Of a stretch of 64,000 nt of DNA, positions 14,704-26,435 are shown in pieces; position 1 is the first letter of the stretch; every line of letters begins with the position of its first letter. Where the stretch lies: positions 1,736,001 through 1,800,000 of the forward strand of contig NZ_CP085081.1 in assembly GCF_023243115.1 (NCBI RefSeq), written 5' to 3'. The notes under the pieces were generated by a model that ran no database searches, had not been told where the DNA came from, and worked only from the letters and a program-made list of their open reading frames with translations. The position numbers and the translations under genes are program-made. Origin of the DNA: Sediminicoccus sp. KRV36 (lineage in GTDB: Bacteria; Pseudomonadota; Alphaproteobacteria; Acetobacterales; Acetobacteraceae).

Positions 14704-15492
14704 CTATCGCCGTACCAGGCTCATCGGCACCATCGCGACCTGCCGGCCGGTGACCGGGATGGGATGGGCCCGATACGCATCCAGCCCACGCCCGCCGCTC
14801 CCGGACATGGGCAGGATCTGGGCGCGCTCGTCGCGATTCGTGAGCGAGAGACTCGTGGACGGCGGCAGCGGCCGCTGGCTGGCGAAGCTCATGCCCACCA
14901 GCGCGCGATCCTCGGCGTTGCGCGCCTGGGCGGCGGGCCAGGCGGCCTGGACCCGGGCGCGATAGGCCTGGGCCAGCTCCGGCGTGTGGGAATGGTAGTG
15001 CCCGGCCGCCGTGATCCAGTCATTCCGCGCCGCCTGCAGCTGCGTGAGGAATTGCGCGGCGTAGCGGGCATTGCTGACGGGGTCGAAGGCCTCCTCCAGG
15101 CTGGCGAAGGCGCGGGGGTGGTGGTGCAGGTTCACCTGCATGCAGCCGACATCGATGATGCGGACGCCACGCCCCTGCAATTCCCGCACGGCGGCAATTG
15201 CTGCCGCCTTGTCGGGGAAGAAATGACCGCGTCCCTCGGCATTGATGGTCCAGGGCCAGGGGCCGGAGGTGCCCGTCTCCGGGTTGCGCCGCCCCGATTC
15301 CACCCGCCCGATGGCCTGGAGCAGGCCGGCGGGGATCTGCGCATCCTGCTCGGCGCGGGCGATGGCGGCGCGGCATTGCAGCGTCGGGTCGGGCGCCGGA
15401 CTGGGGTTCACGGCCGGCTGTGCCAGGCCAGCGGCCGCGTTCAGCGTGATGCAGAGGAGCGTGAGGGCGGCGCGGGGGAGGATGCGGAGCAT
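14704..15492 (-). CDS. Exported lytic transglycosylase, SLT domain
   Basis: 262 aa. The start at 15492 is chosen because a signal peptide begins there (MLRILPRAALTLLCITLNAA) and CAGGG lies 7 bases upstream. The catalytic Glu is in LLQAIGRVESGR (Glu65). DVGCMQVNLHHHPRAFASLE and NARYAAQFLTQL near residues 140-175 are the next two conserved SLT motifs. The enzyme cleaves peptidoglycan glycan strands in the periplasm, forming 1,6-anhydro ends. The C-terminal region after about residue 210 is low in recognisable motifs. It stands alone on the minus strand; its promoter overlaps a candidate plus-strand RNA. Confidence 0.87.
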   Translation of the reverse strand: MLRILPRAALTLLCITLNAAAGLAQPAVNPSPAPDPTLQCRAAIARAEQDAQIPAGLLQAIGRVESGRRNPETGTSGPWPWTINAEGRGHFFPDKAAAIAAVRELQGRGVRIIDVGCMQVNLHHHPRAFASLEEAFDPVSNARYAAQFLTQLQAARNDWITAAGHYHSHTPELAQAYRARVQAAWPAAQARNAEDRALVGMSFASQRPLPPSTSLSLTNRDERAQILPMSGSGGRGLDAYRAHPIPVTGRQVAMVPMSLVRR

Positions 15493-15541
15493 GCCGAGCC
15501 CTGCGCAAGCCGCATGCCAGCCCTGGCCCATTCATCCCATG

Positions 15542-15575
15542 TTGCAATGCAAAAAATCGCTTGCATGCGAGCGAT
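15542..15575. promoter_or_regulatory. Two adjacent palindromes between the transglycosylase gene and the cupin gene
   Basis: TTGCAATGCAA (15542-15552) is a perfect odd palindrome. ATCGC and GCGAT (15556-15560 and 15571-15575) bracket a TTGCATGCGA core, making a 20-bp quasi-palindrome. They sit 50-83 bases upstream of the transglycosylase start and 20-54 bases upstream of the proposed start of the plus-strand RNA, so they could be operator sites for either. Confidence 0.35.
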
Positions 15576-15595
15576 CTCCCACCTATGTTCTGGGA

Positions 15596-15681
15596 GGCGG
15601 CAGGAACTTCGGTTCTTGCCTGCTTTCTTGGACGTTTCCTCCCTAAACTTGGCGGCGCAGCAATGCGTCGCCACTTTTTTT
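15596..15681 (+). ncRNA. Candidate small RNA with intrinsic terminator and anti-Shine-Dalgarno motif
   Basis: No protein gene reads rightward here, yet the plus strand has a textbook terminator: 9-bp arms (one mismatch) around GCAA at 15651-15672, followed by seven T at 15675-15681. Upstream is another stable hairpin, 15599-15620, with 9-bp arms (one mismatch) closing a TTCG tetraloop. Between them lies an unpaired stretch with TTTCCTCCCT at about 15635-15644, complementary to Shine-Dalgarno sequences. A possible promoter is TTGCAT (15561) and TATGTT (15584) with 17-bp spacing, giving a start near 15596 and an RNA of about 86 nt. Small RNAs with CCUCCC-type loops are known in alphaproteobacteria; the assignment to any family is inference. 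Confidence 0.6.
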
Positions 15682-15731
15682 GTCCAAAATCCAGCGAGCG
15701 TCCAGGCCGGGGGCAAAAACGCTGAGCGCTG

Positions 15732-16109
15732 TCAGGGGCCGTCCACAAGCCGCGTCTCGAATTGCGCCGGCGCCGTGATCTCGACCAGCTCCAGGTCATC
15801 CGAATGCACCAATTCGCGGTGGCGGATGCGCGGCGGCTGCAGCACGCTGGTGCCGGCGGTCAGCGTTACCTCGCCGATATCCTCATATTCGAAGCGCACC
15901 CAGCCCTTGACGATCCAGACCATCTGGAATTCCAGCTCGTGCAGGTGCCATTGCGGCTCGGCATGGACGCCCGGAATGGCACGGATCACATGGGCGCCGA
16001 AGCCGCCCTTGGTCGCCTCGGCGATGCCCAGGTCGCCATATTCAAAGAAGGCGCGCAGGCCGCGGGTGAAATCACGCCCATCGGCGTGCCGAATAATCGT
16101 CTTGTTCAT
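15732..16109 (-). CDS. Cupin-domain protein
   Basis: 125 aa, single cupin barrel. Conserved cupin motif 1 is visible as HAEPQWHLHELEFQMVWIVKG near residue 48 (His, His and Glu as likely metal ligands) and motif 2 as TAGTSVLQPPRIRHREL near residue 83. Its ATG overlaps the stop of the upstream GST gene (ATGA), so the two are coupled and may act on the same small molecule. No substrate can be assigned from the sequence. Confidence 0.82.
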   Translation of the reverse strand: MNKTIIRHADGRDFTRGLRAFFEYGDLGIAEATKGGFGAHVIRAIPGVHAEPQWHLHELEFQMVWIVKGWVRFEYEDIGEVTLTAGTSVLQPPRIRHRELVHSDDLELVEITAPAQFETRLVDGP

Positions 16110-16732
16110 GTCATCGGCACCGCGACATGGCGGGCGAAGCCGGCGCGGGCCAGCAACCGCCCATGCCAGGCGACGACGCGCGGCTGCGGCGCCCGCGTGA
16201 TCGGCAGGGCCAGCCAGCGATGGAGATAGGGGCCGAGGGCGATGTCAGCGAGGCTCGGCTGCTCGCCGCCCAGATAGGGCGCCTCGCCCAGGGCTTGCTC
16301 CACCATGTCCCACAGGGCCTGGGCTTCGTCGCGCGCGGCATGGGTGGCGGGCCAGTCGCGCTTCTCCTCGGGTGTCCGGATATAGGTGAAGAAGATGGTG
16401 GTCATCGGCGCGTTCAGATGCCCCAGCTGCCAATCCATCCAGCGCTCGGCGCGGGCGCGGGCGCGCGGTTCGGCCGGGTGCATGGCATGGCCGGGCGCGC
16501 GGGTGCCGACGAGGTAGCGGCAGATGCTGTTGCTCTCCCACAGGGAAAAGCCGTCCGGCTCCTCGATGGTGGGCACGCGCGCATTGGGGTTCATCGCCAG
16601 ATAGGCCGGCTCCCGCGTGCGGCCGAAGCTGCCGCCCGCATCCAGCCGCTGGAAGGGAATTCCCAATTCCTCGCAGAGCCAAAGCAGCTTCATGACATTG
16701 GAGGAGCTGGCGCGGCCCCAGATCTTCAACAT
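16106..16732 (-). CDS. Glutathione S-transferase family protein
   Basis: 208 aa. The N-terminal thioredoxin-like domain begins LKIWGRASSSNVMKLLWLCEE, with Ser residues where the catalytic Ser/Cys is expected (SSSNV). PNARVPTIEEPDGFSLWESN carries the cis-Pro and the glutathione-binding Glu-Ser pair near residue 65. The C-terminal helical domain contains the N-capping motif GEQPSLADIALGPYLHRW near residue 150. It heads a two-gene unit with the cupin gene. Divergent from the catalase gene, with 149 bp between the starts. The substrate is unknown. Confidence 0.9.
   Translation of the reverse strand: MLKIWGRASSSNVMKLLWLCEELGIPFQRLDAGGSFGRTREPAYLAMNPNARVPTIEEPDGFSLWESNSICRYLVGTRAPGHAMHPAEPRARARAERWMDWQLGHLNAPMTTIFFTYIRTPEEKRDWPATHAARDEAQALWDMVEQALGEAPYLGGEQPSLADIALGPYLHRWLALPITRAPQPRVVAWHGRLLARAGFARHVAVPMT

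Positions 16733-26347: not shown

Positions 26348-26435
<88 letters not shown>

What the first reader, a model, noticed from the sequence alone, without database searches (positions are those of the whole stretch)
15596..15681. Orphan plus-strand small RNA with UUCG hairpin, CCUCCC motif and intrinsic terminator
Both flanking protein genes are on the minus strand, yet the plus strand carries a complete terminator (GNRA-looped stem plus seven U), a 5' UUCG-capped hairpin and, between them, a single-stranded UUUCCUCCCU that is complementary to ribosome-binding sites. A 17-bp-spaced promoter-like pair lies just upstream. The layout is that of a trans-acting RNA that blocks translation starts, like the CCUCCC-loop RNAs of other alphaproteobacteria.
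Basis: partly seen in the sequence, partly recalled or inferred. Interest (0 to 1): 0.75.

Follow-up and report, generated by a model that had tools for sequence, protein, structure and literature searches.

The report
Storage-polymer-linked mmgR-type small RNA
This stretch looks like a bacterial small RNA gene of an already described family (mmgR, or alpha-r8) that can block translation starts, and its promoter carries a conserved site matching the one used by the regulator that senses stored PHB plastic granules.

Summary
In detail: at 15596-15681 (+) there are a 5' UUCG hairpin, a linker with UUUCCUCCCU, a GCAA-looped stem and seven U. The element passes the Rfam gathering score for RF00519 (suhB/mmgR; 48.4 bits against 41). 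It is a new member of the known alpha-r8 family (S. meliloti MmgR, Caulobacter SisA-D). In relatives, 37 of 37 window-type copies fold into a 5' hairpin plus terminator, with some compensatory changes.

One addition: the promoter carries the palindrome YGCRNYGCR, the core of the reported site of the PHB-sensing repressor PhaR/AniA. It lies upstream of the -35 in 37 of 37 window-type copies, against 0 of 29 copies of a sister type. In the whole genome, box-spacer-CTTGC occurs only here and at a phasin promoter (pattern built after seeing both).

I propose an anti-Shine-Dalgarno trans-acting RNA released together with phasin when PHB accumulates. Expression, PhaR binding and targets are untested. 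Phasin start regions pair poorly with the linker, and three window-type genomes have the box without a detected PhaR gene.

The parts
15543..15551 (.). TGCAATGCA, putative PhaR/AniA operator (YGCRNYGCR core), centred about -50
   Evidence: sequence; upstream box in 37 of 37 window-type copies, 0 of 29 class B copies; PhaR motif from PMC12542648 passages; full S. meliloti motif not matched
15561..15566 (+). -35 element TTGCAT
   Evidence: sequence; CTTGC recurs in the alignment of relatives
15584..15589 (+). -10 element TATGTT, 17-nt spacer
   Evidence: sequence; alignment; not listed by the E. coli consensus scan
15596..15681 (+). predicted sRNA transcript, alpha-r8/mmgR family; start about 15596-15597 inferred from the -10
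   Evidence: Rfam RF00519 match 15615-15688, 48.4 bits, gathering score 41; fold z -5.3
15596..15624 (+). 5' hairpin with UUCG loop; mostly 5' of the Rfam model
   Evidence: a 5' hairpin predicted in 37 of 37 copies; two of its pairs with changes on both sides in the genus alignment
15635..15644 (+). UUUCCUCCCU, anti-Shine-Dalgarno 10-mer
   Evidence: sequence; GTTTCCTCCC present in 86 of 103 sorted family hits
15650..15681 (+). intrinsic terminator, GCAA-looped 10-pair stem and seven U
   Evidence: compensatory changes

Best explanation
It is a gene for an alpha-r8 (mmgR-type) small RNA of about 86 nt. The sequence shows the promoter, 5' hairpin, anti-SD linker and terminator. Inferred: with Hfq, the UUUCCUCCCU linker pairs with purine-rich ribosome-binding sites of several mRNAs and blocks their translation. 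Inferred: transcription is held down by free PhaR at the upstream operator and released, together with phasin, when PHB granules bind PhaR, so that the RNA retunes translation to the carbon-storage state. The second alpha-r8 gene in the genome lacks the operator and would answer to other signals.
For: Rfam match above the gathering score. 43 of 60 genomes of the relative set (own genome included) have an above-cut-off copy. Window-type copies: 37 of 37 fold into a 5' hairpin and terminator by a loose pair-count criterion; 5 of 24 consensus pairs in the genus alignment keep the pair through changes on both sides. YGCRNYGCR upstream in 37 of 37 window-type copies against 0 of 29 class B. In named records the box is upstream in 66 of 80 loci, and 77 of 80 have one somewhere in -104..-40, against 254 of 9266 control windows. 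Own genome: PhaR, PHB synthase, Hfq, two phasins. The phasin at C1:96822 has two boxes matching the full S. meliloti motif, and 7 of 7 genus phasins of that type whose start was found have paired boxes. Box-spacer-CTTGC occurs only at that phasin and here. PhaR binds the S. meliloti mmgR promoter and represses mmgR (passages). Caulobacter SisA represses mRNAs, likely through the same 10-mer (passages).
Against: No expression data. PhaR binding untested; the window box fits the core but not the full S. meliloti motif (no full match in the window). Only the upstream box is present; 0 of 21 genus copies have a second box near the start site. Three window-type genomes (G001, G013, G018; 86, 74 and 91% complete) have the box but no PhaR was found. 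Three Gluconacetobacter copies and one Acidisoma copy lack the upstream box although PhaR is present. Own phasin start regions pair poorly with the linker (rank 52 and 54 of 54), unlike the MmgR-phasin link proposed in S. meliloti; that background was picked for strong SD sites, which favours it. Over all phasin loci taken, 16 of 45 had a box, with many doubtful starts.
Confidence: 0.75

Rival explanations
1. An alpha-r8 anti-SD RNA without PhaR control; the palindrome is an upstream promoter element or the site of another regulator.
For: Core box only, no full motif match in the window; box without detected PhaR in G001, G013 and G018; PhaR without upstream box in Gluconacetobacter and Acidisoma silvae copies.
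Against: Box kept at nearly fixed distance in 37 of 37 copies, same layout at the phasin promoter only, published PhaR binding at S. meliloti mmgR.
Confidence: 0.2
2. The palindrome serves the divergent SLT transglycosylase gene (14704-15531, minus), not the RNA.
For: Box lies near the start of the divergent SLT gene; 31 of 37 window-type loci have the SLT gene beside the RNA.
Against: The other 6 loci (L094, L098, L102, L109, L115, L116) show no SLT hit at E 1e-6 in the fetched stretch (L094 has only about 500 nt upstream) yet keep the box at the same distance.
Confidence: 0.04
3. Not an RNA gene: a chance terminator, the 3' end of read-through, or part of a protein gene.
For: No transcript data; loose terminators are common by chance; plus-strand open frames of 1011 and 134 codons overlap the site.
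Against: Rfam match; changes on both sides of pairs; length changes of 1-2 nt among relatives within the element, which would break a frame; the long frame is antisense to Pfam-domain genes.
Confidence: 0.03

Closest known systems
MmgR of Sinorhizobium meliloti (Rfam RF00519, alpha-r8)
   Same: Rfam family, UUUCCUCCCU core, terminator, box matching the core PhaR/AniA site at the promoter
   Different: 5' hairpin lies further upstream and the Rfam proximal hairpin is degenerate; box upstream of the -35 rather than between -35 and -10 as reported for S. meliloti; own phasin start regions are poor partners; two family genes above cut-off here, one in S. meliloti
SisA-D of Caulobacter crescentus (alpha-r8)
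   Same: same 10-mer with anti-SD signature; several paralogues with unlike promoters (passages)
   Different: SisA adjoins an N-formylglutamate amidohydrolase gene; here the neighbours are SLT, cupin and GST; a CrfA-like sponge was sought only as perfect complements of the 10-mer
alpha-r14 (NfeR1) CCUCCUCCC RNAs
   Same: C-rich anti-SD motif in unpaired regions
   Different: a single UUUCCUCCCU, not CCUCCUCCC in three hairpins (definition from PMC10746234 passages); no other Rfam family reached its gathering score at this place

Membership tests
alpha-r8 / mmgR (RF00519) | covariance-model score above the curated gathering score | tested here: met
   48.4 bits against 41
alpha-r8 / mmgR (RF00519) | 10-mer UUUCCUCCCU in a largely unpaired internal stretch | tested here: met
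   15635-15644; mean unpaired probability 0.72 in the model
alpha-r8 / mmgR (RF00519) | Rho-independent terminator at the 3' end | tested here: met
   15650-15681
alpha-r8 / mmgR (RF00519) | weak hairpin upstream of the 10-mer | tested here: inconclusive
   Rfam proximal stem is degenerate; a 3-pair mini-stem and a strong distal UUCG hairpin are predicted instead
alpha-r8 / mmgR (RF00519) | discrete Hfq-bound transcript | not testable with these tools
   an Hfq gene is present; no RNA data
PhaR/AniA regulon | YGCRNYGCR core palindrome in the promoter and a PhaR gene in the genome | tested here: met
   15543-15551; PhaR at G000:C1:474973
PhaR/AniA regulon | full S. meliloti motif with AT-rich arms | tested here: not met
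   no full-motif match in the window; so PhaR control is proposed, not filed as shown
PhaR/AniA regulon | PhaR binding and derepression without PhaR | not testable with these tools
   needs gel shift and a mutant
alpha-r14 (NfeR1) | CCUCCUCCC in the unpaired regions of three hairpins | tested here: not met
   one CCUCCC only in 15596-15681; definition from PMC10746234 passages

The most novel reading that the evidence does not exclude
In Acetobacteraceae the window-type alpha-r8 gene is the PHB-sensing branch of a split family. PhaR controls it through a promoter module shared in this genome only with a phasin gene, while its class B paralogue has no operator. The PhaR-to-alpha-r8 wiring known from Sinorhizobium would then be old and widely kept, and the RNA would pass the granule state on to translation of mRNAs other than phasin.
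Probability: 0.55. Interest if true: 0.5.

Novelty: new member of a known kind. Interest (0 to 1): 0.35.

Why it matters
By the 2025 Caulobacter paper (passages), MmgR was until then the only characterised member of the family, and the paper leaves open whether siblings are redundant and whether all are tied to carbon metabolism. Here two paralogues in one genome, one with a PhaR-type box and one without, make that question directly testable and suggest that the link to PHB storage is a conserved property of one branch.

Tried and rejected
Phasin as the direct target: start regions of the two own phasins rank 52 and 54 of 54 against genes called in the window by a simple script; PhaR ranks 37 and PhaC 26, and six genus phasins 38 to 50. 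The script chose background starts for strong SD sites, which makes this harsher than fair; I reject phasin as an obvious target, not as a possible one. Best of the 54 was the neighbouring GST gene, but its orthologues vary from -11.7 to -26.7 kcal/mol: a weak lead. Perfect complements of the 10-mer: 7 sites in the genome, 2 being the sRNA genes; of the other 5 only an SDR-like gene has the site at a start codon. Of its 20 genus copies examined (own included) many but not all keep a strong purine-rich site; not decisive.

Box loss following PhaR loss: G029 has a family copy without box and no PhaR or phasin hit, but there are exceptions both ways (box without PhaR: G001, G013, G018; PhaR without upstream box: L209, L228, L262, L267), so no rule. 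A consensus fold of all 37 copies missed the 5' hairpin, whose stems differ in length; single folds and the genus alignment show it. In one search some loci were read on the wrong strand; corrected.

Limits of the sets. Of 113 rows I worked with 103; the 10 left out are from genomes outside the family. The window type (class A) was defined by its linker (TTGGACGTTTCCTCCCT, then A, T or G, then AACT), so linker identity within it is by construction; the box and the stems were not used to define it. The box was seen in the 37 copies first. One search was given 30 of the 80 loci; 26 genomes were searched, one locus was not held.

Literature: no listing pointed to this family in Acetobacteraceae (one search returned no paper). 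The 2016 mmgR phylogeny paper was seen only as a reference and PMC5370414 is not held. All papers cited were seen as passages only.

Full report
WHAT IS THERE. The flanking genes with Pfam domains, an SLT-domain protein and a cupin, are on the minus strand. A TTGCAT-17-TATGTT pair lies upstream; the E. coli consensus scan does not list it, but CTTGC and a similar layout recur in relatives.

WHAT IT IS. Rfam names it: RF00519, suhB / Makes More Granules Regulator RNA (mmgR), 15615-15688, 48.4 bits against a gathering score of 41. The literature calls the family alpha-r8. From passages of PMC12559287: it is said to be present in all Alphaproteobacteria except Rickettsiales, it carries UUUCCUCCCU and a terminator, and Caulobacter SisA represses many mRNAs, likely through this 10-mer, with CrfA as sponge. 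From passages of PMC8401924 and PMC12542648: S. meliloti MmgR limits PHB, is repressed by AniA (PhaR), and its promoter is bound by PhaR.

RELATIVES. The host's genus in the relative set includes Roseococcus pinisoli and Rubritepida flocculans; this is my inference from equal contig lengths. The own genome has two copies above cut-off and a third, weaker hit. In the relative set 43 of 60 genomes (own included) have a copy above cut-off. Of 113 hits I sorted 103 by linker: 37 window-type (class A), 29 of a second type (class B, whose own-genome copy lies before a gene that I read as proS) and 37 others; 86 of the 103 hold GTTTCCTCCC. The linker defines class A, so its identity there is by construction. 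The SLT gene is beside the RNA in 31 of the 37 class A loci. 37 of 37 fold into a 5' hairpin and a terminator by a loose pair count. In the genus alignment of 20 copies, 5 of 24 pairs (two in the 5' stem, three in the terminator) have sequences with both sides changed and the pair kept; two copies break or gap part of the 5' stem. The 37-copy consensus fold found the terminator but not the 5' stem.

THE PROMOTER. Upstream of the -35, 37 of 37 class A copies carry YGCRNYGCR starting between -104 and -84 from CCTCCC; class B has 0 of 29 there and 1 of 29 with a box nearer the start. In shuffles of the class A regions 0.23 have such a word anywhere in 105 nt. The two sets overlap in part. This is the core of the PhaR site reported for S. 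meliloti, though the window copy does not match the full motif. In the own genome a phasin gene at C1:96822 has two full-motif boxes; the other phasin has none in 200 nt. The pattern TGCANTGCA-N5-12-CTTGC occurs twice in 4.9 Mb, at that phasin and at this RNA, both with AAAAATCGCTTGC; the reversed pattern gives none. I built the pattern after seeing both sites, so it shows exclusiveness rather than an independent discovery. PhaR, PHB synthase and Hfq genes are present; the PHB synthase hit lies about 33 kb from the RNA gene. PhaR was found in 26 of 26 further genomes searched that hold a named locus (at least two of them are genomes of the first set again), but not in G001, G013 and G018, which have the box and are 74-91% complete.

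HOW IT LIKELY WORKS. Shown: sequence anatomy, family membership, conservation of stems and box. Inferred: PhaR keeps RNA and phasin low until PHB granules take PhaR away; the RNA then pairs through its anti-SD linker with start regions and lowers translation. Against a simple copy of the S. meliloti picture, the start regions of the two own phasins rank 52 and 54 of 54 (background chosen for strong SD sites). Candidate targets such as an SDR-like gene with a perfect complement at its start site are leads only, since any strong Shine-Dalgarno sequence would score.

VERDICT. Very probably a real, conserved small RNA gene and a new member of a known family; the PhaR-type operator is the part worth a bench test. 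No listing pointed to this operator in Acetobacteraceae, but key subscription papers were not readable.

Noticed in passing
L001 1501-1578 (G000:C1:1511996-1512073): Second alpha-r8 copy (52.3 bits) between a short plus-strand ORF and an ORF that I read as proS; class B, no PhaR-type box.
   Followed up: partly
G000:C1:3066355-3066427 (L003): Sub-threshold hit (30 bits) with a different linker, GCTTTGCCTTCCTCAACCTTG, seen in 7 genomes of the genus set; possibly a separate small RNA family.
   Followed up: no
L066, L051, L035, L085, L072: Further weak hits in the genus with related linkers (for example GCGTTTCCTCCCATGACCTTGGCCGG in L051), perhaps other alpha-r8 offshoots.
   Followed up: no
G000:C1:579683-579697 (L187): The only other match to TGYTGCRNYGCRAAA in the genome lies near the start of an ORF that I read as a peroxiredoxin gene.
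   Followed up: no
window 16106-16732: Start region of the neighbouring GST gene is the best partner of the linker among 54 window genes, but this is not evenly kept in relatives.
   Followed up: partly
G000:C1:3793020-3793029 (L335): Perfect complement of the 10-mer at the start site of an ORF that I read as an SDR-family oxidoreductase.
   Followed up: partly
window 26351-26435: tRNA gene on the minus strand (Rfam RF00005).
   Followed up: no
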